Shown here piece by piece: positions 30,718 to 43,964 of a stretch of 64,000 bases of DNA (position 1 is the first letter of the stretch; each line of letters begins with the position of its first letter). Below the pieces are notes generated by a model. The model saw only the letters and a program-made list of their open reading frames with translations. It searched no databases and was not told the DNA's origin. The stretch covers positions 5,173,501-5,237,500 of the forward strand of contig NC_019757.1 of the NCBI RefSeq assembly GCF_000317535.1, written 5' to 3'. A program made the position numbers and the translations under genes. The DNA is from Cylindrospermum stagnale PCC 7417. Lineage in GTDB: Bacteria; Cyanobacteriota; Cyanobacteriia; Cyanobacteriales; Nostocaceae.

Positions 30718-33700
30718 ATGAGTGATAATCGAAAGCGATCGCTAACTGAACAAAATCGCGCCTTAAACTTATTTACAGACCGCCACGATTTAACCCGCGT
30801 ATTTGCTGCCTATTTGAATGACGAACAACCATCAGAAAAAATCTTATTTTTTCATGGTGATGGCGGTAACGGTAAATCTTTGCTGCTAAGGTTTTTACAG
30901 ACTCGCTGTTGTAAACGCTTGCGGTGGGAGAGTTGGCAGGGTTTACAATCTAAAAGTGATCGGGAAGTTGCAGACTATATCGAAAATTTGGCAGATAGTT
31001 GGGAATTTGCCGAAGTACCAGCAATTTCGCAAGATTTTGGACTTAGCCCCAATGGCGATGATCAACCCCAAGATCCATTTTATGGGTTATTGATGTTGAG
31101 GAGAAAACTTTCTCGTGCAGCTACAGAATTAAAATACCATTTGCGGTTTCCGTTGTATGACTTCGCTTGCATTTGGTATCTCAAGCAAAAAAACCGCCTC
31201 ACCCCCGAAAAATTAAAAGAACTCTTTCCCGCAGAAGAACTTGATTTGCTGATAGAAATTGGTAATGCTGTCAGCGATACATCTTGGGGAACTATTGGTA
31301 AAGCAGTATTGGGGATTTTTAACAAGCATTTAGGGGAAAACTTTATTCTGCACTTGCAGCAGCGGGGAATCAAAGCAGAGGATGTGCAAGGAATCCGGCG
31401 GATGGATGCAGAAACCGAATTAATTAACGAATTACCGCGATATTTGGCTGAAGATTTAAATGCGGCGATGTCCCAAAAGAATGCACCAAAAAGAATTGTA
31501 CTATTTTTTGATACTCACGAAGCCTTTTGGGGTTATCAGCGCAACTTACCAGATACGCTATTTTTTCAAAAAGATGAATGGCTAAGATATTTTTTAGCAG
31601 AACTGGAACTGAAAGCCGGTATAGTCGCAGTAGTCGCGGGAAGAGAAGCACCACGCTGGGATAAAGCTGAGAATTTCCCTATTAATCACTTAGATAATCA
31701 ATTGGTGAATTGTCTCTCACCAGATGATGCAGATGAATATTTACGACGTGCTGAAGTTACGAATGAGGATTTGAGAAAAAATATCATTTCCTATGCTAGC
31801 GTGGAAGTACATCAGGTACATCCGTTTTTGCTGGGTTTGTGTGCGGATGTGGTATCGCAAGCAAAAGCGCCAACAGTTAATATTACCCCTGCTGACTTCC
31901 CCAAAACACCGGAAACAGCAAATAAAGCTGAGATACTAATTAACCGATTGCTGAAATATGCAGATAGAGACATTGGTTATGCTGTTCATGCTTTAAGTGC
32001 TTGTCGAGCATTTAATTTTGATATTTATCACCTTTTGGGTGAGAAATTACATTTTCAAACGACTAAACCAGCTTTTGAAATCCTCACAGAATTTTCTTTT
32101 GTTTGGGATGTAGAACAGTTGGGTAAAGACTGGTATCGCATTCACAACTTATTGCGTCGCTTAGACTATGAAGGGGGTAACAAAACTACCCAACAAGCGC
32201 ATGAGGTGTTAGAAAAATATTACCGCCAACAAGGGAAAGTAGCAGAAGCAATTTATCACGCTAACCGCTTGGACTGGTTGCGGGGTGTAAATGAGTGGGT
32301 GAACGTGTTTGACGAAGCATTGCAAAAGAGTCGTTATGAACAATGTCGTTCACTGTTGGAAATCAGAAATGAAATAGTGATAGAGAGCAATTTTGATTTG
32401 GGTAGAGTATCCCAACATGAAGGCGATTACTTTGCAAAATTAGCTCGATATCAAGAAGCGCGAGAAGAATATTTAGAAGCTGTTGCTGCTTATGAACAAG
32501 AACTGAGAATTACTCCTGATGATACCGCTACCCTCAACAACTTGGGGAATGCGTTACAAAGATTGGGGGATTTGCAAACACAGCTTTCCCAGCATAGTGA
32601 AGCATTACAATCTTACAATAATGCGATCGCCAACTACAAATTAGCCCTCAACTTGGCTCCTGATGATACCGCTACTCTCAACAACTTGGGGAGTGCGTTA
32701 CAAAGTTTGGGGGATTTGCAAACACAGCTTTCCCAGCATCATGAAGCATTACAATCTTACAACGATGCGATCGCCACTTACAAGTTAGCCCTCAACTTGG
32801 CTCCTAATAATATCTATGCTCTCAACAACTTGGGGTTAGCGTTACAAAGATTGGGGAATTTGCAAACAAAGCTTTCCCAGCATAGTGAAGCATTACAATC
32901 TTACAATAATGCGATCGCCACTTACAAATCAGCCCTCAACTTGGCTCCTGATTACATCAATGCTCTCAACAACTTGGGGAATGCGTTACAAAGATTGGGG
33001 AATTTGCAAACACAGCTTTCCCAGCATCATGAAGCATTACAATCTTACAATGATGCGATCGCCACTTACAAATCAGCCCTCAACTTGGCTCCTGATTACA
33101 TCAATGCTCTCAATAACTTGGGGAATGCGTTACGAAGTTTGGGGGATTTGCAAACACAGCTTTCCCAGCATCATGAAGCATTACAATCTTACAATGATGC
33201 GATCACCACTTACAAATCAGCCCTCAACTTGGCTCCTGATTACATTCAAATTCTCAACAACTTGGGGAATGCGTTACGAAGTTTGGGGAATTTGCAAACA
33301 CAGCTTTCCCAGCATCATGAAGCATTACAATCTTACAATGATGCGATCGCCGCTTACAAATTAGCCCTCAACTTGGCTCCTGATTACATCAATGCTCTCG
33401 ATAACTTGGGGAATGCGTTACAAAGTTTGGGGGATTTGCAAACACAGCTTTCCCAGCATCATGAAGCATTACAATCTTACAATGATGCGATCGCCGCTTA
33501 CAAATCAGCCCTTAACTTGGCTCCTGATTATATCAATGCTCTCAATAACTTGGGGAATGCGTTATTGCGTTTAGGTATATTTCTTTTAGAATCATCCCAA
33601 AAACAAGAAGCTGTAAATTGTATTCAAGAAGCATTAACTTTATTTAATCGCTCTTTAGCAATAGCTCCCGGTGGTGAGTCTGTTCGGAATTTGCGAGATA

Positions 33701-33732
33701 AATTACAAAATTTTCTGGATAATTTAGACTAA
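30718..33732 (+). CDS. STAND-type ATPase with TPR repeats
   Basis: 1004 residues. Walker A FFHGDGGNGKSLLLRFLQ lies at residues 44-61 and Walker B KRIVLFFDTHEAFWG near residue 260, with a winged-helix-like region at about 400-500, the layout of signal-transduction STAND NTPases. Residues 560-1004 are TPRs, seven of them almost identical 48-residue units. There is no N-terminal effector domain, so it may need a separate effector or act as a scaffold. STAND-TPR proteins often sense ligands through the repeats, and many act in antiviral defence; which applies here is unknown. It stands alone, transcribed toward psaC. Confidence 0.8.
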   Translation: MSDNRKRSLTEQNRALNLFTDRHDLTRVFAAYLNDEQPSEKILFFHGDGGNGKSLLLRFLQTRCCKRLRWESWQGLQSKSDREVADYIENLADSWEFAEVPAISQDFGLSPNGDDQPQDPFYGLLMLRRKLSRAATELKYHLRFPLYDFACIWYLKQKNRLTPEKLKELFPAEELDLLIEIGNAVSDTSWGTIGKAVLGIFNKHLGENFILHLQQRGIKAEDVQGIRRMDAETELINELPRYLAEDLNAAMSQKNAPKRIVLFFDTHEAFWGYQRNLPDTLFFQKDEWLRYFLAELELKAGIVAVVAGREAPRWDKAENFPINHLDNQLVNCLSPDDADEYLRRAEVTNEDLRKNIISYASVEVHQVHPFLLGLCADVVSQAKAPTVNITPADFPKTPETANKAEILINRLLKYADRDIGYAVHALSACRAFNFDIYHLLGEKLHFQTTKPAFEILTEFSFVWDVEQLGKDWYRIHNLLRRLDYEGGNKTTQQAHEVLEKYYRQQGKVAEAIYHANRLDWLRGVNEWVNVFDEALQKSRYEQCRSLLEIRNEIVIESNFDLGRVSQHEGDYFAKLARYQEAREEYLEAVAAYEQELRITPDDTATLNNLGNALQRLGDLQTQLSQHSEALQSYNNAIANYKLALNLAPDDTATLNNLGSALQSLGDLQTQLSQHHEALQSYNDAIATYKLALNLAPNNIYALNNLGLALQRLGNLQTKLSQHSEALQSYNNAIATYKSALNLAPDYINALNNLGNALQRLGNLQTQLSQHHEALQSYNDAIATYKSALNLAPDYINALNNLGNALRSLGDLQTQLSQHHEALQSYNDAITTYKSALNLAPDYIQILNNLGNALRSLGNLQTQLSQHHEALQSYNDAIAAYKLALNLAPDYINALDNLGNALQSLGDLQTQLSQHHEALQSYNDAIAAYKSALNLAPDYINALNNLGNALLRLGIFLLESSQKQEAVNCIQEALTLFNRSLAIAPGGESVRNLRDKLQNFLDNLD
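32533..33540 (+). repeat. seven tandem 144-bp TPR units
   Basis: Seven consecutive 144-bp units, each beginning CTCAA(C/T)AACTTGGGGAATGC or a close variant and encoding 48 residues (LNNLGNALQ, then LSQHHEALQSYNDAI and YKSALNLAPDYINA). Differences between units are few at the DNA level, including at silent positions, so the array expanded recently. An eighth unit starts at 33541 and then diverges. Confidence 0.92.
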
Positions 33733-35185: not shown

Positions 35186-37075
35186 ATGTGCGGAATCGTT
35201 GGATATATTGGCACTCAAGCGGCGACAGAAATTTTACTCGCTGGTTTGGAAAAGTTGGAGTATAGAGGCTACGATTCTGCGGGAATCGCCACGATTTGGG
35301 AAGGTGAGGTTAGTTGTGTGCGGGCTAAGGGGAAACTGCTTAACCTGCGTTCTAAACTTGAACAAATAGAAAATCCAGCCCAATTGGGGATTGGTCACAC
35401 CCGCTGGGCAACTCATGGTAAACCTGAAGAGTATAATGCCCATCCCCATCTAGATACGGCCAAGCGAGTGGCGGTGGTGCAAAATGGAATTATTGAAAAC
35501 TACCGCGAGTTACGCGAAAAACTAAAAGGGCAAGGACACAAATTTGTTTCTGATACCGATACAGAGGTGATTCCCCACCTGATAGCGGAGTTTCTCAAGC
35601 ATTCTCCGGTGGATTCCCTGTTTGGCTTATTAGATGCGGTTCGTCAAGCTGTGAATAGTTTAGAGGGGGCATTTGCGATCGCAGTTGTTTCCGCTGACTA
35701 CCCCGATGAATTGATTGTAGTCCGGCAACAAGCCCCGCTGGTAATTGGTTTTGGACAAGGTGAGTTTTTCTGCGCCTCTGACACTCCGGCGATCGCGCCC
35801 TACACCAGAGCCGTGCTACCTTTAGAAAATGGCGAAATTGCCCGCTTGACTCCTTTAGGCGTTGAAGTTTACAACTTTGCTGGGGAGAGGTTAAAAAAAC
35901 ACCCCCGCACCCTCAACTGGAATCCCATCATGGTGGAAAAGCAGGGATTCAAGCATTTTATGCTCAAGGAAATCTATGAGCAACCAGGAGTGGTACGGGC
36001 TTGTTTAGAAGCTTATTTGCAACCTGAATGGAATGCACAATTAACTGAACAGTCACCTTTTAAACTCGGTTTACCACCGGAGATTTACGCAGATTTAGAA
36101 CAAATTCAAATCGTCGCTTGTGGTACTAGCTGGCACGCTGCTTTAGTGGGTAAATACTTGCTTGAACAACTGGCGGGAATTCCCACACAGGTGCAGTATG
36201 CTTCTGAGTTTCGCTATGCACCATCACCGCTAACGCCTTATACACTTACCATTGGCGTGACCCAATCAGGAGAAACCGCCGATACTTTGGCAGCTTTGGC
36301 GATGGAAAAAGAACGCCGCAGCGGAAAAGGAGAAAGGTATCAGCCGAGACTGTTGGGGATTACCAATCGCCCAGAAAGCACCTTGGGTAATATGGTAGCG
36401 AATATTATCGATACCCACGGGGGAATTGAAATTGGCGTCGCGGCTACGAAAACTTTTGTCGCCCAACTGATGGCGTTTTATGCTTTGGCTTTAGATTTGG
36501 CTTATCGTCGTCAAACGATTACTCTCGACAGATTAGAGGAAATTCTTGCAGGGTTAAGCCAGTTACCAGGGAAAATTGAAGCGATTTTGGAGACTCAAGA
36601 GCGTTATATTGAGCATTTGGTACACGACTTTACCGAAACTAAAGATTTTATCTTTGTGGGTAGGGGGATTAATTTCCCGATCGCATTAGAAGGGGCGTTA
36701 AAGTTAAAGGAAATCAGCTATATTCACGCTGAGGGCTATCCAGCGGGGGAAATGAAGCATGGGCCGATTGCTTTATTGGATGCTAAAGTGCCTGTAGTGG
36801 CGATCGCAATTCCGGGAACTGTCTACGAAAAAGTTATTTCTAACGCCCAAGAAGCAAAAGCCAGAGATTCCCGTTTAATTGGCGTTACTTCTGTCAATCA
36901 TGGCGAAGCAGCAGAAATCTTCAACGACTTAATCCCCGTCTCGGATGTGGAAGAGTTACTTTCCCCCATTCTCACAGTAATTCCCCTGCAATTATTGGCT
37001 TATCATATTGCAGCCCGTCGCGGTTTAGATGTAGATCAACCGAGAAATTTAGCTAAGTCTGTAACTGTGGAATAA
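35186..37075 (+). CDS. glmS: glutamine-fructose-6-phosphate aminotransferase (isomerizing)
   Basis: 629 residues. It makes glucosamine-6-phosphate, the entry to peptidoglycan and lipopolysaccharide amino sugars. Cys2 (MCGIVGYIG) is the glutaminase nucleophile; GIGHTRWATHG and NGIIENYRELRE complete that domain. Two SIS domains follow (VACGTSWHAALVGKYLLEQL; VGRGINFPIALEGALKLKEI). The C-terminal DQPRNLAKSVTVE is the family ending. I see no glmS riboswitch upstream. Full length and intact. Confidence 0.97.
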   Translation: MCGIVGYIGTQAATEILLAGLEKLEYRGYDSAGIATIWEGEVSCVRAKGKLLNLRSKLEQIENPAQLGIGHTRWATHGKPEEYNAHPHLDTAKRVAVVQNGIIENYRELREKLKGQGHKFVSDTDTEVIPHLIAEFLKHSPVDSLFGLLDAVRQAVNSLEGAFAIAVVSADYPDELIVVRQQAPLVIGFGQGEFFCASDTPAIAPYTRAVLPLENGEIARLTPLGVEVYNFAGERLKKHPRTLNWNPIMVEKQGFKHFMLKEIYEQPGVVRACLEAYLQPEWNAQLTEQSPFKLGLPPEIYADLEQIQIVACGTSWHAALVGKYLLEQLAGIPTQVQYASEFRYAPSPLTPYTLTIGVTQSGETADTLAALAMEKERRSGKGERYQPRLLGITNRPESTLGNMVANIIDTHGGIEIGVAATKTFVAQLMAFYALALDLAYRRQTITLDRLEEILAGLSQLPGKIEAILETQERYIEHLVHDFTETKDFIFVGRGINFPIALEGALKLKEISYIHAEGYPAGEMKHGPIALLDAKVPVVAIAIPGTVYEKVISNAQEAKARDSRLIGVTSVNHGEAAEIFNDLIPVSDVEELLSPILTVIPLQLLAYHIAARRGLDVDQPRNLAKSVTVE

Positions 37076-37169: not shown

Positions 37170-37380
37170 ATTCAAATTGTCAGAATCAGGATTAACCAGA
37201 TTAGAGAATAAACAGGATTATTTTTCATCTTGATATCCTATCTATCTTCAAATCCTGTTCATCCTTAAATCCTATAAATTCTGATTCTAACATTTTTACA
37301 TCCTGTTCATCCTTAAATCCTACAAATCCTGATCAGGATTTACTAGATGAGAAGATAAACAGGATTCATTTTAACCACAA
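37170..37380. repeat. degenerate direct repeats of type ATCCTGTTCATCCTTAAATC
   Basis: Two copies of ATCCTGTTCATCCTTAAATC continuing CTA(T/C)AAAT(T/C)CTGAT occur at about 37252-37286 and 37300-37333, flanked by further AACAGGATT and ATCAGGATT words on the other strand. The tract fills the gap between glmS and the convergent DprA-like gene. No gene seen. Confidence 0.7.
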
Positions 37381-37382
37381 TA

Positions 37383-38630
37383 TCACAACAAAGAAAGTTG
37401 AGTATCTGGCTGATTGAGTACATAAGCAACAGGCTTATTAATTTTTCTGACTTTCCCCTCATCCAAAGCTCTTTTTAACCAATCATCCATTTGTACTTTT
37501 CTGACTTTTAGAGAATCCGCAAGAGATTTTGCATCCTTGGGTTGCTCTAAATGATTGAGGATGAAAGGTAAAACAACGTCATAAATATCTTCAGGAATTG
37601 TGGGTAAATCTTGTGGGAGAGTTTTAACATTTTGTTCTGCATTTTCTTTTGTGATAACTTCAGTTCTTATATGCTTGAAATCAGCAATAGCTTTTGCTAA
37701 TATTTCCCGCAAATTACCATTTTCAAATTCTGAAGGAAACGGTTTTGCACCTTGATTATATAATTGCTGATTTCCTTCTGGTACTGGAGATACCATTTTC
37801 ACAAATACAGGAATTTCCTTCAGTTTAGATAATGCTTCCACCGCACCAGCCCAAGTTCCACCTTTACCAAAAGCGGAATTAACAACTAAGGCATAATCTG
37901 CTAAACTATAAATATATTTATTTCGACCCATTGCGTTACCGGTATTAAAGCCAGAATCAGGATCATAGCTAGAAATTAAAGTTAATCTACCTTCTTGAAT
38001 ACTGGAACGATATTTGCTATTTACTGCTGCTTTAGTCAAGCTATCAGCTAACACACCAATAGAAGTTCCTCCATTATCCAAAATACCTAACATTGATTCT
38101 TGATCTATTCCCCGCGCACCACCAGAAATAACCTGTATTCTTTGTTGAGAACAAGTCTGTACAACTCTGCGGGTGTAAGCGAGTATATCTTCATCTACAT
38201 CACGAGAACCGACAACTGCTAGTCCTCCTAAAGATAATAATTCTGTATTCCCAACTCCATAAATAATCGCTGGTGCTGAATGTTTCAATATTTGTTTGAG
38301 ACGTTTCGGGTATTTAGTATCACTGCGTCCCAACACCCATAAACCGCGACTTGTCCATTTTTCCACTGCTAAACTTAACATTGCACCCCGTTGTAATAAA
38401 GCTAAAAGCCTATCAGGGTTAAGTTTATTATTAGTTATTTTTTGTAACTGTGCTTTTGCTGTTGCTTCCAATAAATCTGCTGGACGCATTTGATTTTCCC
38501 GCAACCAATCTGTTAGCAAGTTATATTCACCCAGAGTCAGAGGTAGCGGTTCAATTTGGCGATTTTGTCCAAAACTGGCACACAACAGCAAAATTGCTTG
38601 AGTATCTGGTGCTAGGACATGATTTAACAT
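37383..38630 (-). CDS. DprA/Smf-like nucleotide-binding protein
   Basis: 415 residues. The Rossmann-like core is visible: LAVVGSRDVDEDILAYTRRV, then IQVISGGARGIDQESMLGIL and DSLTKAAVN, the DprA/Smf pattern. An N-terminal helical region precedes it and a winged-helix-like C-terminus follows (AKSLADSLKVRKVQMDDWLK). DprA loads RecA on single-stranded DNA during transformation, but this divergent copy begins seven bases after a RecQ-phosphoribosyltransferase gene, so it more likely belongs to a separate DNA-processing or defence module. The gene is intact. Confidence 0.8.
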   Translation of the reverse strand: MLNHVLAPDTQAILLLCASFGQNRQIEPLPLTLGEYNLLTDWLRENQMRPADLLEATAKAQLQKITNNKLNPDRLLALLQRGAMLSLAVEKWTSRGLWVLGRSDTKYPKRLKQILKHSAPAIIYGVGNTELLSLGGLAVVGSRDVDEDILAYTRRVVQTCSQQRIQVISGGARGIDQESMLGILDNGGTSIGVLADSLTKAAVNSKYRSSIQEGRLTLISSYDPDSGFNTGNAMGRNKYIYSLADYALVVNSAFGKGGTWAGAVEALSKLKEIPVFVKMVSPVPEGNQQLYNQGAKPFPSEFENGNLREILAKAIADFKHIRTEVITKENAEQNVKTLPQDLPTIPEDIYDVVLPFILNHLEQPKDAKSLADSLKVRKVQMDDWLKRALDEGKVRKINKPVAYVLNQPDTQLSLL

Positions 38631-39930
38631 AATTTTCTAATCCGATTGACCTAATGAATTAAGCGCTAATGCTACAGAATAAACTAATCCACTTCCAGCA
38701 TTACGCAAAAGTGCTGCAATGACAGTAAAAGTCCAACGGGAATCTACCATGTCATCAATTAAGAATACATTACCACTCATTCCTTCCCAGAATTGAATTG
38801 TAAAAGATCCATCTAAATTATGAGCTTGTTGATAACTGTTATTCATATCTTTCTGAAACTGAGTTTCGCGTATTTTGCGGACAATGGGTTTAAATGGTAA
38901 GCCTAATTTCTCAGCTAGTCTTTGCGCGAAGTTAGGTACAAGTTCTAGACGATTTAAGGAAGGTACACAAGTTACCCATGTGGGAAAAGGTTGAGGTTTC
39001 CAACGTTGGATCAAATCAAAAGTAGCCTGAACAAGTGCATCATCAAAATAATTATCTTGATATTTTCCCCGCTTGACTAATTCTCCCCAACCTGCATCAC
39101 CCCATAGAGATAATGTTCTTCCTGCTTCTGCTCTTAAATTGTTTTTAATGTTTCCAGAAAAACCATAATTTAGTAATGATTCTTTAATCCATTGTTTACG
39201 TGGTTCAATAATTTGGTCACTACGACGTAAATATAAAATTGCTTGATTTACAAGTTCATCTGAAAAAGTTTCTGACAATAATGGCTTACCCAAACACACA
39301 GCACATTTACCACATTCTTGTGGATTTGGATCATCTAATTCTGCTGCTAAAAAAGCCATTAAGCATTGTTGACTTTGCATATAATCTGCCATTCGCTGTT
39401 GTTCTTGACGGCGAATTTGGGTTAGCTTTTCAATTTTTTGATGATCAATTTGATAGTTGATTGGGTTAGCGTACCATTTAGAATCTATCTTGGTGACGGG
39501 TGTCGGAAATTCTAAAGATAGTAATTTCAAAACTTTATTAATTTGTCCTTGGGAGAGATTTATTTGTTGTTCTATTTGGTTAACAGAAATTCCATTTTTA
39601 GCAGAATTAATTACAGCTAATACTTGTTCGGTATGTATTTGGGGAGGAAATGCTGTATTGATAAAATAGTTAGTAATTTCTTCATCTTCATCACCGCTTA
39701 ACAGAATACCGTAGGCTGTTTCTACTGCTCTACCGGCTCGTCCTACTTGTTGATAATAGTGTACAACAGAACCTGGTCTTTGGTAATGAATTACAAATCC
39801 TAAATCTGGTTTATCAAAACCCATACCTAACGCTGTTGTTGCGACTAATGCTTTAATTTTGTTTTCTAAAAGTTCATCTTCTAATATTTCTCGTCCATCT
39901 TCTAGCTTGCTGTGATAAGCTTTAGCATTA

Positions 39931-40945
39931 CAGCACTTCCGTCTGTAATGAGGTACACTAGATTAAAATATAAATATTTTTAAATGAAGTCATACTCTGT
40001 CGATCTTAGAGAAAAAATAGTTGCAGCACATCTTCAGGAAAACATCTCAATCAGGAAAGTAGCTAACATATTTTCCGTGTCAAAGAGTTTAGTGCAAAAG
40101 CTTGTAAAACAACAAAAAGTTGATGGAAATTTACAACCTAAGCCGCGAGGAAAACCACAATTTAGTCATCTAACAAATGCTGACATAGAGTTAAGAGAAT
40201 TAGTTGAAGCACATCCAGATGCAACATTGATAGAGTTGTGTGAATTATTTGCAGACAAGACTGGCAATTGGGTAGGTCGAAGTGCAATGTGTTCTGCATT
40301 ACAGAAATTAGGATTAAACCGTAAAAAAAAACAAAGCGCAGTACCCAAGCAGGCACAGAGAGAGTCCTGAATTTAAGATTAGATTATTGGAATCAGGTCA
40401 AAAATATAGAGCCAGAAAATTTAGTATTTTTGGACGAAACTGGCGTTCTACTTGGTTTAACAAGGACTCATGCCCGTTCACAAATGGGAACAAGAGCTTA
40501 CTCTCTCAATCCCTTTTATCGAGGTTCAAAGGTTACGGTAATTGGAGCCATTAGTATTAAAAAAGTAGTTGCATTAATGACAATGAATGATTCAATGAAT
40601 GGTAACGCATTTGAAGTATTTGTTGAGAAGTTTTTAGTGCCAAATTTATGGTCAGGAGCAGTTGTAGTGATGGATAATTTATCCGCGCACAAACTAGATT
40701 CAATTGTGCCAATGATTGAAGCTGTCGGCGCTTCAGTTATTCGTTTATCCTCATATTCTCCTGATTTTAATCCAATTGAATTATGGTGGTCACAACTTAA
40801 ATCTTTCTTACGCAGTTTTGCTCCAACTACAACAGAAATGGTTGATCAACTAATCTCAGTTGCACTCGACTTAATAAATCCTCAACATTTAAGAAACTGG
40901 TTTGCTAGTTGCTGCTACTGTACCTCATAATAGCCGGAAATGCTG
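39931..40945 (+). mobile_element. IS630-family insertion sequence inside recQ
   Basis: A 1015-bp element flanked by TA duplications (39929-39930 and 40946-40947), the IS630/Tc1 target. The ends are imperfect inverted repeats of about 30 bp: left CAGCACTTCCGTCTGTAATG, right (reversed) CAGCATTTCCGGCTATTATG, both continuing AGGTACA. It carries one transposase gene, oriented opposite to the helicase. Both ends, the TA copies and the transposase frames look fresh, so the insertion is recent and the element may still be active. Confidence 0.93.
39984..40930 (+). CDS. IS630-family transposase, two frames joined at an A9 run
   Basis: The first frame (39984-40370, 128 residues) is an HTH domain (SIRKVANIFSVSKSLVQKLV). 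The second frame holds the DDE catalytic domain: FLDETGV (first Asp), VVMDNLSAHK (second Asp) and SPDFNPIELWWSQLKSF (Glu). Both frames are open across nine consecutive A at 40323-40331; reading the second frame from there gives KKTKRSTQAG, then ERVLNLRLDYWN, and on to LVFLDETGV without a stop. This is the programmed-frameshift arrangement known in many IS630 elements, so the transposase is probably functional. An alternative is a real frameshift mutation at the A-run. Confidence 0.88.
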
Positions 40946-42055
40946 TAATGCTTTGTGTTTGTAACCAATCAGCAACTCGTTGAGCATCTCTTACAGTTAA
41001 TGTGTAAATAATACCGCTTCCAGGTAATTTAGTCAGATTTTCTGCTAACCAAGCTAATCTTGCGGCTTGACTGGGAAGATAAATGTTTTGTAAACGCAAA
41101 GTTTCTCTAGTTAAATTTCCTCTAGAAACACGCAGGTTGGCTCCTAATTGAGCCTTAATATCATCAACTACTCGGTTGTTAGCTGTCGCGGTTGTAGTCA
41201 AAACAGGAATATTTTGTGGTAATGCTTGTAAAATTCTGACAATCCGGCGATAATCAGGACGAAAATCATGTCCCCAGTCAGAAATACAATGAGCTTCATC
41301 AACAACAAATAAACCTATTTTTTGAGATAATGGCAAAAGAACGTTTTCTCGAAATTCCTCATTAGCTAATCTTTCGGGGGAAATTAAGAGAATATCTACT
41401 TCTCCTGCTAATAGCTGGAGTTCGACATTTTCCCATTCTTCTGTATTACTGGAGTTTATTGTCTCAGCTTTTACTCCAAGACGTTCTGCTGCTGTAATTT
41501 GATTTCGCATTAATGCTAGGAGAGGGGAAATCAAAAGAGTACAACCAGAACCTTGATCTCTTAATAAGCGAGTTGCTAAAAAGTAAACTAGACTTTTTCC
41601 CCAACCTGTGCGTTGAACGACGAGTAACCGCGATTGATTCAGTAGTAATTCTTCAATAGCTTCCCATTGTCCATTACGAAAATCAGCGTTTGGGTTATTC
41701 AAAGCCTGACGCAGAAGGAATAATGCTTTTTCTTTGAGTATGGTTGTCATATATGCTGAGTATCTGTTTATCATACTGTTGTAGCATAAAAGATAACTAG
41801 CACTGAATACTTTAGGGCGATCGCTCTATTTTAGATTAAATCGAAGCGTGAAGCGATATCTAGGTTGTGGTATGCGATCGCTTATCATAGAAAATAGATG
41901 TATGCTTTATCTTCCCTATTAAGGTCAGTTAGCAGGTAACGATAAAGCTTTCTTGATATCAGACATAGGAGAAAAAATAATGTTAAAATAGCAGTAAAAC
42001 CAATTTACAATTAATCAGAATTTGAATAATTATCCTCCTAACTAATATTATATAT

Positions 42056-43129
42056 ATGTTACCCAAACACCCTTGGTTGCAAAAATGCATAGAAAGACTG
42101 GAAGAATTACCCCAAATCAAGGCGACTGCTATTGTAGAACCTGGTTATTTGGAAGGTGCACTTGCTGATGGAATATTGACTATATATACACCTCAAAATC
42201 AAGTTCAATATATAGTTGAAATTAAATCTAAGCTAACTATTGAAACTCTAGATGTAGTAATTCTATATTTCAATCATCTAAAACAAAGATTGGGTGATAA
42301 TCAAAAACCTCTGCTAGTTACAGATATACTGTCTGATGAAGTTGTAGAGGAGTTAATTAGAATAGATATTGAATTTATTGACACCTCAGGCAATATTTAT
42401 ATCAATAATTCATTATTTTACATTTTGATTAAAAATAGTTCATTTTATCAGAAAAAAACTTCTTCGCCTACATTTAATACTAACACTTTAAAAGTAGTAT
42501 ATGCCATATTAAAAAAACCCAAAATTTTACTATTTTCTCGTGACGAAATTGCAGAAGTTGCAGGAGTTGATATAAATGCTGTCGAAGTTAGTTTAGATAG
42601 TTTGTTTAAGCTGAATTATTTACAGCAGCAATATGGTGGTCGATATAAAATTGAAAATTACACTAAGTTGTTAGAAAGATGGGATATGGGCTACTTAGAA
42701 AATCTCCGTTCAGAGCTTGTGATAGATACATTTAGCCCCATTAGAAATATCCAATTTTCTGATTTTTTATTTCAAAGTTTAGACATAGTTAGCGGCTACA
42801 AAATTTTGGTTGGTGGAGAATTTGGTGCTAGTGCTTTATTTAAGACTGCTTATTTGCAGCCAACAAGTATAGTTTTACATATTCCTAATCAATTGAATTA
42901 TCGGATTATAACTACTCAGTTACGCCTGAAACCAAATGTACAGGGAAACATCACTATTATTAAACAGTTTAGCTCGTATAATTTTTATGAAAACAACGAT
43001 ATGATTGCTGATCCTCTCTTGATACGTGCAGAATTGCTTTTATATCCAGATGAGCGTTTAAAAGAGACTGCTACGCGTATTTATAATGAATATATTTTTC
43101 AAATAGGACAAATGGCTGAGACGCTATAG
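42056..43129 (+). CDS. AbiEi-like antitoxin/regulator
   Basis: 357 residues, A/T-rich coding. An N-terminal restriction-like or sensor domain (residues 1-130, YIVEIKSKLTIETLDVVILY) is followed by a winged helix (LKVVYAILKKPKILLFSRDE, then IAEVAGVDINAVEVSLDSLF) and a C-terminal region (GYKILVGGEFGASALFKTAY) as in type IV AbiEi-family proteins. It ends one base before the start of the nucleotidyltransferase gene. It probably represses the operon and counteracts its partner. The family call is by domain order. Confidence 0.7.
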   Translation: MLPKHPWLQKCIERLEELPQIKATAIVEPGYLEGALADGILTIYTPQNQVQYIVEIKSKLTIETLDVVILYFNHLKQRLGDNQKPLLVTDILSDEVVEELIRIDIEFIDTSGNIYINNSLFYILIKNSSFYQKKTSSPTFNTNTLKVVYAILKKPKILLFSRDEIAEVAGVDINAVEVSLDSLFKLNYLQQQYGGRYKIENYTKLLERWDMGYLENLRSELVIDTFSPIRNIQFSDFLFQSLDIVSGYKILVGGEFGASALFKTAYLQPTSIVLHIPNQLNYRIITTQLRLKPNVQGNITIIKQFSSYNFYENNDMIADPLLIRAELLLYPDERLKETATRIYNEYIFQIGQMAETL

Positions 43130-43130
43130 C

Positions 43131-43964
43131 ATGAATAATCTAAATCCTAACTTTGATGTAGATAGAACAAGAGTTATTAATGATCTCAAAATTATTCTCG
43201 ATTCATTGCAATTATCAATATTATTAGTTGGCGCTCAATCACGGATATTGATTTTTGATAAACCGTATCAAATTCAAGGTCGAGCAACTACAGATTGTGA
43301 TATAGTGGTAAGGCTGGATAGTTGGGATAAATATGGTATTTTAATCACAAAAATAGTTGAAGGTGAAAAACCTAAATTTAAACTCAGTAGGATTATTCAT
43401 AAATTTATTCATATTGAAACTAATTTAGAAGTCGATATTATTCCCTTTGGTGATATCTGTAATCAAAATCAGGAAATTATCTGGCCTGACGGTAATCAAA
43501 TGTGTATTTTAGGCTTAGAAGAAGCTTTTATAAATTCACAAATCCAAAAAATTGACGATATTGAAATTAGGGTTCCCACTCTTCAAAGTTTTATAGGCTT
43601 AAAGCTACTTGCATGGAATGAGCGCAGAGAATATAAAGATTTATCTGATATTATCTTGGTGCTAGAAAATTATCAGGAAGATGAACGGGTATTTGATGAA
43701 CTGAATGATGAACTTATCGCGGGAACGGTTGAGTTTGAGGAAGCTGCAATTGTTTTGCTTGGTAGAGATATTTGCCAAACGTTCAAAGATAAAACTTTAA
43801 GCAAAATTAACGAAATTGTAATTCTAATTATAGAGAATCAGAATCGATATTTACCGCAATTTGTATCTAGAGATACAGATTCAAATGCATGGGATGATGC
43901 GTTTATAAAAATCGTTAGCCGCTTTCAAGCGCTCCAATACGGTTTAAATAATAATCATGCTTGA
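43131..43964 (+). CDS. AbiEii-like nucleotidyltransferase toxin
   Basis: 277 residues. The active-site pattern of the Pol-beta superfamily is visible: LLVGAQSRILIF followed by RATTDCDIVVRLDSW, with the two catalytic aspartates in DCD and a third acidic strand at NLEVDIIPFGD. AbiEii enzymes modify tRNA or other targets with nucleotides to halt growth during phage infection. One base separates it from the AbiEi-like gene, so the two are coupled. It may instead be a divergent member without toxic activity. Confidence 0.75.
   Translation: MNNLNPNFDVDRTRVINDLKIILDSLQLSILLVGAQSRILIFDKPYQIQGRATTDCDIVVRLDSWDKYGILITKIVEGEKPKFKLSRIIHKFIHIETNLEVDIIPFGDICNQNQEIIWPDGNQMCILGLEEAFINSQIQKIDDIEIRVPTLQSFIGLKLLAWNERREYKDLSDIILVLENYQEDERVFDELNDELIAGTVEFEEAAIVLLGRDICQTFKDKTLSKINEIVILIIENQNRYLPQFVSRDTDSNAWDDAFIKIVSRFQALQYGLNNNHA

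What the first reader, a model, noticed from the sequence alone, without database searches (positions are those of the whole stretch)
37383..43964. DprA, RecQ-phosphoribosyltransferase and AbiE-like genes form a possible defence island
A divergent DprA-like gene starts seven bases after a RecQ helicase that ends in a phosphoribosyltransferase domain; an AbiEi/AbiEii-type pair lies just beyond. DprA and phosphoribosyltransferase domains have been linked in comparative studies of prokaryotic conflict systems, as far as I recall, but the triple RecQ-PRTase-DprA arrangement is not a system whose mechanism I know. It may sense or trap single-stranded invading DNA and make a nucleotide signal.
Basis: partly seen in the sequence, partly recalled or inferred. 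Interest (0 to 1): 0.75.

Follow-up and report, generated by a model that had tools for sequence, protein, structure and literature searches.

The report
Transposon-broken PsyrTA toxin-antitoxin phage-defence pair
The helicase and DprA-like genes are a known bacterial toxin-antitoxin defence pair (PsyrTA, also called RqlHI) whose toxin gene has here been cut in two by a jumping gene, and the antitoxin ends in a short peptide that looks like a docking tag for the DNA replication clamp.

Summary
The DprA-like gene (37383-38630, minus) matches PADLOC PsyrA (2.7e-140). The RecQ-phosphoribosyltransferase gene matches PsyrT in two pieces (7.1e-148, 2.5e-134). An IS630 element (39931-40945, TA at both ends) splits it inside the helicase. 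PsyrTA corresponds to RqlHI of Russell & Mulvey 2015: a genotoxic helicase-phosphoribosyltransferase restrained by a DprA-like partner. A canonical DprA lies elsewhere in the genome. The pair is accessory: PsyrA in 1 of 3 genomes of the genus and 64 of 388 of the order, both genes in 18 of 386 of a phylum sample. The AbiEi/AbiEii-like pair is a separate module, beside none of 19 other PsyrTA-type loci. Best explanation: a recently inactivated PsyrTA with an intact orphan antitoxin in a variable chromosomal spot. One possibly new point: cyanobacterial PsyrA often carries a clamp-binding-like peptide after its SLOG domain (30 of 57; shuffle mean 1.85); this copy ends in QLSLL. That suggests tethering to the replication clamp, which was not tested.

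The parts
37383..38630 (-). PsyrA/RqlI, DprA-like (SLOG) antitoxin, 415 aa, intact; winged-helix-like C-terminal part (named from its look, no family hit); last five residues QLSLL (clamp-binding-like)
   Evidence: PADLOC PDLC03927 2.7e-140; Pfam PF02481 3e-38; alignment; tail
38637..39923 (-). C-terminal piece of PsyrT/RqlH: end of helicase domain, RecQ zinc-binding region, phosphoribosyltransferase with DDMVDSRWT; first ATG at 39824
   Evidence: PADLOC PDLC03928 7.1e-148, model 303-686; frame open back to the IS end; alignment
39929..39930 (.). TA target duplication, left copy
   Evidence: sequence; script
39931..40945 (+). IS630-family insertion sequence with imperfect terminal inverted repeats; transposase in two ORFs of different frame (39984-40370 and 40430-40930)
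   Evidence: Pfam HTH_Tnp_IS630 1.1e-08 and DDE_3 3.3e-27; NCBIfam NF033545, both pieces below its cut-off singly; ends; copies elsewhere
40946..40947 (.). TA target duplication, right copy
   Evidence: sequence; script
40905..41774 (-). N-terminal piece of PsyrT/RqlH: DEAD/DEAH domain with RTGWGKS and DEAHCISDWGHDFRPDYRR; runs into the IS and stops at a TAG at 40905-40907
   Evidence: PADLOC PDLC03928 2.5e-134, model 5-269; alignment
42056..43129 (+). AbiEi-like protein: AbiEi_2 C-terminal domain plus an N-terminal domain with invariant E28, D38, E55-I-K57 (nuclease-like pattern); separate module
   Evidence: Pfam PF09952 3.6e-13; alignment of 7 sequences
43131..43964 (+). AbiEii-like nucleotidyltransferase partner; separate module
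   Evidence: Pfam PF08843 2.8e-05; PADLOC AbiEii 7e-07; alignment of 6 sequences

Best explanation
This is a PsyrTA (RqlHI) toxin-antitoxin/phage-defence operon, psyrT then psyrA on the minus strand, inactivated by a recent IS630 insertion in psyrT. In an intact copy, PsyrT is a RecQ-like helicase with a C-terminal phosphoribosyltransferase whose PRPP site makes it genotoxic, and PsyrA, a DprA-like SLOG protein, binds and restrains it (shown in E. coli, not here). Release from PsyrA, presumably when phage or plasmid replication disturbs DNA metabolism, would let PsyrT damage DNA or its nucleotides and stop the cell (inferred). In this genome the gene is cut inside the helicase, so no functional toxin is expected (inferred), and the antitoxin gene remains as an intact orphan. 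The AbiEi/AbiEii-like pair next to it is an independent type IV TA-like module in the same variable spot.
For: PADLOC: PsyrA 2.7e-140, PsyrT pieces 7.1e-148 and 2.5e-134. Helicase motifs conserved; DD-x-VDSRWT in the window's C piece and in 11 of 12 relatives aligned, L045 having VNSRWT; changes at this site in E. coli RqlH remove the growth, SOS and filamentation effects, leaving a modest loss of viable counts (PMC4670107, section read). Operon order and close spacing as in intact relatives. IS630 ends with TA on both sides; 10 full-length copies elsewhere in the genome, each flanked by TA; in relative L046 the two flanks, aligned separately, meet at one TA. Recent insertion: window pieces against L050 give dN/dS 0.26 (N) and 0.235 (C), and no stop lies in them outside the IS. 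Canonical DprA elsewhere passes TIGR00732 (269.6 bits, cut-off 191.15), PsyrA does not (93.6). Accessory: PsyrA in 1 of 3 of the genus and 64 of 388 of the order, both genes in 18 of 386 of the phylum sample. PsyrA relatives next to an annotated RecQ helicase on Nostoc plasmid pNPM3, between type I restriction subunits S and R on an E. coli plasmid and among BREX-1 genes on an Acinetobacter plasmid. Decay: of 62 loci not cut by contig ends, 10 have antitoxin intact and toxin partial or absent, 1 the reverse (caveats in evidence against).
Against: No function was tested. In the E. coli NILS69 study PsyrTA was among the systems with no detectable protection in an expression assay, and the strain expressing it grew poorly (PMC12409345, passages). 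PsyrT at 1e-120 also rang in 1 of 14 control genomes, Corynebacterium glutamicum. Pfam does not call the phosphoribosyltransferase domain in this copy. The decay asymmetry is modest once the greater length of psyrT is considered; two of the 10 (L136, L137) have a PsyrA that lacks the part after the SLOG domain, and one search counted a TGA inside their matches; L060, the reverse case, is a short divergent PsyrA; some breaks may be assembly errors. Of 58 neighbouring ORFs of 15 cyanobacterial PsyrTA loci, the 25 PADLOC families shown (of 96 at 1e-15) each match only one or two, so a constant defence neighbourhood is not shown.
Confidence: 0.9

Rival explanations
1. The DprA-like and RecQ-like genes are competence or recombination genes: DprA loads RecA on incoming single strands and the helicase-PRTase is a ComFA/ComFC-like uptake motor.
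For: SLOG/DprA domain; weak NCBIfam match of the C piece to GntX, a ComF-type PRTase (0.0043); the authors of PMC4670107 discuss a link to competence.
Against: A canonical dprA is elsewhere in the genome and two other RecQ-type genes are in all 3 genomes of the genus searched; PsyrA is absent from most relatives searched; relatives lie on plasmids and among restriction or BREX genes.
Confidence: 0.05
2. The split is functional: the two psyrT pieces are expressed separately and reassemble, or the C piece (from ATG 39824) keeps a PRTase activity that PsyrA still restrains.
For: Both pieces and psyrA keep open frames and low dN/dS; an ATG at 39824 exists.
Against: The split falls inside the helicase; the ATG at 39824 lies within a conserved helicase stretch (ALGMGFDKPD); [quoted passage not shown] coli; a recent insertion explains the open frames as well.
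Confidence: 0.05
3. PsyrTA and the AbiE pair form one composite defence system.
For: They are neighbours here (42056 is 281 bases beyond the psyrT start at 41774, divergent).
Against: None of 19 other loci with PsyrTA, a remnant or a PsyrT-like gene has the AbiE pair; none of 7 loci with AbiE relatives has PsyrTA within about 6 kb.
Confidence: 0.03

Closest known systems
PsyrTA / RqlHI (PADLOC PsyrT PDLC03928, PsyrA PDLC03927)
   Same: Domain plan, operon order, close spacing, PRPP-site motif. Cyanobacterial members were already in print: Trichodesmium in PMC4670107, PsyrTA in bloom cyanobacteria in PMC11265339 (passage). An rqlH split by an insertion element was reported in Shigella sonnei 53G.
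   Different: Toxin gene interrupted by IS630 inside the helicase; antitoxin ends in QLSLL, a kind of peptide absent from the two Pseudomonadota PsyrA proteins read through here.
ShosTA
   Same: DprA-like antitoxin with a PRTase partner (PMC9122126, passage); PsyrA matches ShosA 6.2e-27; solved ShosA 9vzo matches weakly (0.0016).
   Different: ShosT is a short PRTase (PADLOC model of 237 positions) without a helicase (recalled).
DpdF of the Dpd system
   Same: RecQ-type helicase related to PsyrT (best 3.9e-61 for the N piece).
   Different: Different system and partners (recalled); the PsyrT model scores far higher on both pieces.
DprA and ComFA/ComFC competence proteins
   Same: DprA domain; PRTase-helicase theme.
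   Different: PsyrA fails the TIGR00732 cut-off; the genome has a canonical DprA elsewhere.
AbiE type IV toxin-antitoxin
   Same: AbiEi_2 and AbiEii Pfam domains in adjacent genes.
   Different: The AbiEi-like protein has an extra N-terminal domain with a nuclease-like invariant pattern; no PADLOC model matched it at 0.01.

Membership tests
PsyrTA / RqlHI | RecQ-like helicase fused to C-terminal phosphoribosyltransferase | tested here: met
   Two pieces cover model 5-269 and 263-686 of 689; DDMVDSRWT present. Met as sequence; the gene is interrupted, and Pfam's PRTase model did not reach 0.01.
PsyrTA / RqlHI | DprA-like SLOG antitoxin directly downstream on the same strand | tested here: met
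   PsyrA 2.7e-140, six bases after psyrT
PsyrTA / RqlHI | Intact toxin reading frame (needed for a working copy, not for descent) | tested here: not met
   IS630 at 39931-40945, TAG at 40905-40907
PsyrTA / RqlHI | Toxicity of PsyrT neutralised by PsyrA; phage protection | not testable with these tools
   Needs expression assays; E. coli data in PMC4670107, a negative protection result in PMC12409345 (passage)
DprA (competence) | Score above the curated DprA equivalog cut-off | tested here: not met
   TIGR00732 93.6 bits against 191.15
AbiE type IV TA | Adjacent AbiEi and AbiEii domains | tested here: met
   PF09952 3.6e-13 and PF08843 2.8e-05; second gene follows the first in 6 of 7 relatives' loci, shortened in L086; the seventh is a partial match
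AbiE type IV TA | Toxin inhibited without protein contact | not testable with these tools
   Experiment needed
IS630 family | IS630 transposase, TA target duplication, terminal inverted repeats | tested here: met

The most novel reading that the evidence does not exclude
In cyanobacteria the PsyrA antitoxin is tethered to the DNA sliding clamp (DnaN) through a short C-terminal peptide (QLSLL and variants), so that PsyrTA watches the replisome: clamp-bound PsyrA would hold PsyrT at replication forks and free the toxin when a phage takes over or strips the fork. The peptide is present after the SLOG domain in 30 of 57 PsyrA proteins (shuffle mean 1.85, maximum 7 in 2000) and before it in 0 of 57; it survives loss of the winged-helix part in L049 and L050 and sits in the linker instead of the tail in L052 and L121.
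Probability: 0.35. Interest if true: 0.65.

Novelty: new member of a known kind. Interest (0 to 1): 0.35.

Why it matters
It replaces a possible new defence system by a known one and shows that this copy is probably dead, which stops a wrong lead. It adds three usable points: PsyrTA is a patchy module in cyanobacteria; in the loci examined its toxin gene is more often broken than its antitoxin gene; and the antitoxin often carries a clamp-binding-like tail. If the tail does bind DnaN, the open question of what PsyrTA senses would become directly testable.

Tried and rejected
Composite PsyrTA-AbiE system: rejected, no co-occurrence in the loci examined. Wider defence island: I scanned 25 of the window's 49 ORFs of at least 130 aa against PADLOC; 7 families at 1e-10 (PDC-S03, PDC-S17, a methyltransferase, LmuB), each in one or two ORFs, best 1.4e-27; I read these as general kinase or enzyme domains and did not follow them. 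Old insertion kept by selection: the IS copy is 92% identical to the ten full-length copies in the genome but 94% to a copy in another genus, so its divergence does not date the insertion, and branch counts show no relaxation. Phage carriage of PsyrA: 3 phage records matched, none over 80% of the protein. A TAG in the housekeeping RecQ genes turned out to be the ordinary gene end. A search of solved structures with its alignment gave two hits, best 0.059, in the middle part only. Sberro et al. 2013 is not held; what I know of it is recalled.

Limits: the clamp-like motif was chosen after seeing the tail, and shuffles do not correct for relatedness. Among representatives clustered at 80, 70 and 60% identity it is in 23 of 42 (shuffle mean 1.42, maximum 6), 14 of 31 (1.02, 6) and 6 of 14 (0.46, 4). 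The clamp-motif consensus is recalled, not taken from a call; the one paper found gave no consensus in the passages seen. The name glmS for 35186-37075 is read from its sequence and was not tested.
Full report
What is there. The finding spans 37383-43964. On the minus strand lie psyrA (37383-38630, 415 aa) and, six bases upstream of its start, the end of psyrT. PADLOC names both: PsyrA 2.7e-140, and PsyrT 7.1e-148 for 38637-39824 and 2.5e-134 for 40905-41774. The psyrT gene is in two pieces because an IS630 element sits between them: 1015 bp, 39931-40945, TA on each side, transposase domains on the plus strand. Read as it stands, the N piece runs into the element and stops at a TAG at 40905-40907. 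Ten full-length relatives of the element (92% identity), each flanked by TA, lie elsewhere in the genome. In the relative L046 the two flanks of the insertion, aligned separately, meet at a single TA.

Age of the break. Against L050, one of the two nearest relatives, the N piece gives dN/dS 0.26, the C piece 0.235 and psyrA 0.20. Polarised amino-acid changes are not in clear excess on the window branch: 5 against 4, 7 against 13 and 5 against 6. The insertion therefore looks recent relative to that split. The element's own divergence does not date it, because a 94% copy exists in another genus.

What it is. Russell and Mulvey (PMC4670107; abstract, the sections on the PRTase domain and on orthologues, and part 1 of 2 of the discussion read) describe RqlH, a RecQ-like helicase with a phosphoribosyltransferase domain, and RqlI, a DprA-like partner in the same operon that binds it and holds back its genotoxicity. 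Changes in the PRPP site remove the growth, SOS and filamentation effects (a modest loss of viable counts remains), and the PRTase domain alone is not toxic. By motif, the same site is DDMVDSRWT in the window's C piece; 11 of 12 relatives aligned have DD-x-VDSRWT and L045 has VNSRWT. The paper reports a cyanobacterial member (Trichodesmium) and an rqlH split by an insertion element in Shigella sonnei 53G. PMC9122126 (passage) lists DprA homologues as antitoxins in shosTA, 'syrTA' and rqlHI. PMC10855318 (passage) calls PsyrTA a system that protects by abortive infection. Against a general defence role, PsyrTA was among the systems of E. coli NILS69 with no detectable protection in an expression assay (PMC12409345, passages). 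PsyrTA appeared in 13 papers of the library (listing; five of the 13 looked into, and one search's paper is not among them, so four by passages).

Distribution. PsyrA at 1e-50 is in 1 of 3 genomes of the genus and 19 of 386 in a phylum sample, with 0 of 14 control genomes ringing. PsyrT at 1e-120 is in 20 of 386, with 1 of 14 controls ringing. Eighteen genomes hold both, and in all 18 psyrT lies directly before psyrA on the same strand, 17 with fewer than 180 bases between the matches and G321 with about 1.8 kb. The two PsyrT-only genomes (G216, G294) match only to about position 500, without the PRTase part. The one PsyrA-only genome (G106) keeps a psyrT remnant. In the order, PsyrA is in 64 of 388 at 1e-60, 0 of 14 controls ringing. 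The genome's canonical DprA passes the DprA cut-off that PsyrA fails. A tblastn search of 72,556 plasmid records gave 6 with a PsyrA match, 3 of them over at least 80% of the protein. I looked at four: Nostoc pNPM3, with RecQ and DprA genes adjacent; an E. coli plasmid, the two genes between type I restriction subunits S and R; S. meliloti pSymB, a RecQ gene with an unannotated PsyrA match in two pieces after it; and an Acinetobacter plasmid, the two genes among BREX-1 genes. Of 50,697 phage records, 3 matched PsyrA and none covered 80% of it.

Decay. I fetched 66 loci with PsyrA (63 of the 64 order genomes, the window included; G621, whose match reaches a contig end, was not fetched; plus G086, G123 and G304 of the phylum sample). 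Four were dropped because a gene ran off a contig. Of the remaining 62: 45 have both genes intact, 10 have psyrA intact and psyrT partial or absent, 6 have both damaged, and 1 has psyrT intact and psyrA partial (L060, a short divergent protein). Two of the 10 (L136, L137) have a PsyrA without the part after the SLOG domain, and one search counted a TGA inside their matches; leaving them out gives 8. The asymmetry is in the direction a toxin-antitoxin pair predicts, but psyrT is longer and some breaks may be assembly errors.

The spot. In the sister genome G002 the same spot between the glmS-like gene and a short-chain dehydrogenase gene holds about 2.5 kb of other sequence, with an HNH endonuclease gene, and no match to PsyrTA or AbiE. 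In G001 the two flanks are not adjacent. The spot is therefore variable in the three genomes seen.

The AbiE pair. AbiEi_2 and AbiEii domains are found at 42056-43129 and 43131-43964. A scan of genome contigs found 7 relatives of the first protein at 46-61% identity. Six are near full length and each is followed by the second gene, shortened in L086; the seventh is partial. None of these 7 loci has PsyrTA within about 6 kb, and none of 19 other loci (17 PsyrTA pairs, one remnant, one PsyrT-like helicase, several cut short by contig ends) has AbiE. The N-terminal 140 residues of the AbiEi-like protein hold invariant E28, D38 and E55-I-K57 in 7 of 7 sequences, a pattern like PD-(D/E)XK nucleases (recalled). 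Of four N-terminal parts scanned, one matched Pfam NucS_C at 0.011, below its cut-off, and three matched nothing. No fold could be obtained.

The clamp-like tail. PsyrA of the window ends in QLSLL. Among 57 complete PsyrA proteins, 30 hold Q[LM]xL[FLI] after the SLOG domain against a shuffle mean of 1.85 and a maximum of 7 in 2000; none holds it in the longer N-terminal part; seven reversed or altered motifs occur in 0 to 6. In the last 30 residues it occurs in 28 of 57, against 6 of 253 other ORFs of at least 250 aa from the same loci; by their sequences 4 of those 6 look like PsyrA fragments. A looser form, [QL]Lx[LF][FLIY], is in the last 30 residues of 42 of 57; 15 lack it, two of which (L052, L121) have QLNLF in the linker instead. 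L049 and L050 lack the winged-helix part but keep the tail. The E. coli and Acinetobacter proteins lack the motif, as do the last 90 residues of the genome's canonical DprA. Such peptides dock proteins on the bacterial sliding clamp (recalled). Binding was not tested. The motif was chosen after the fact, and shuffles do not account for descent: at 60% clustering it is in 6 of 14 against a mean of 0.46, maximum 4. A search for 'clamp-binding motif' with 'DprA' gave one paper; its two passages seen concern other proteins.

Mechanism. Shown elsewhere: PsyrT toxicity through the PRTase, restraint by PsyrA, physical contact. Inferred: release on infection and arrest of the cell. Shown here: interruption of psyrT. 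Inferred here: no working toxin, orphan antitoxin. Verdict: a known kind of system, broken in this genome, with one testable new idea about what its cyanobacterial form senses.

Noticed in passing
window 37386-37400 (last five codons of psyrA) and PsyrA of 57 loci: Clamp-binding-like peptide after the SLOG domain of cyanobacterial PsyrA, usually near the C-terminus.
   Followed up: partly
window 42056-42475: N-terminal domain of the AbiEi-like protein with invariant E28, D38, E55-I-K57 in 7 of 7 sequences; possible nuclease-AbiEi fusion.
   Followed up: partly
L043 4157-7226 (G002): Same chromosomal spot carries an HNH endonuclease and short ORFs instead of PsyrTA/AbiE; a roughly 100-base stretch found at window 37174-37281 is repeated on both sides of that cargo.
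   Followed up: partly
L060 5484-8426, L061 3338-5488: RecQ-type proteins of distant relatives with HRDC and RQC domains ahead of the helicase, an unusual order; L060 also has the PRTase.
   Followed up: no
L049, L050: The nearest PsyrA relatives lack the winged-helix part but keep the QLSLL tail.
   Followed up: partly
L125, L128-L132, L149, L158: PsyrA proteins of about 490-585 aa, longer than the usual 400-450.
   Followed up: no
window 40320-40340 and L063-L072: An A-run in the IS630 transposase gene differs by one A between copies (1015 and 1014 bp), near where the first transposase ORF ends.
   Followed up: no
window about 32636-33565: Repeats of 65 matched bases spaced 144 bases apart inside the long ORF 30718-33732 (from the self-matches).
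   Followed up: no
L091, L093: RecQ-DprA pairs nested between type I restriction genes and among BREX-1 genes.
   Followed up: no
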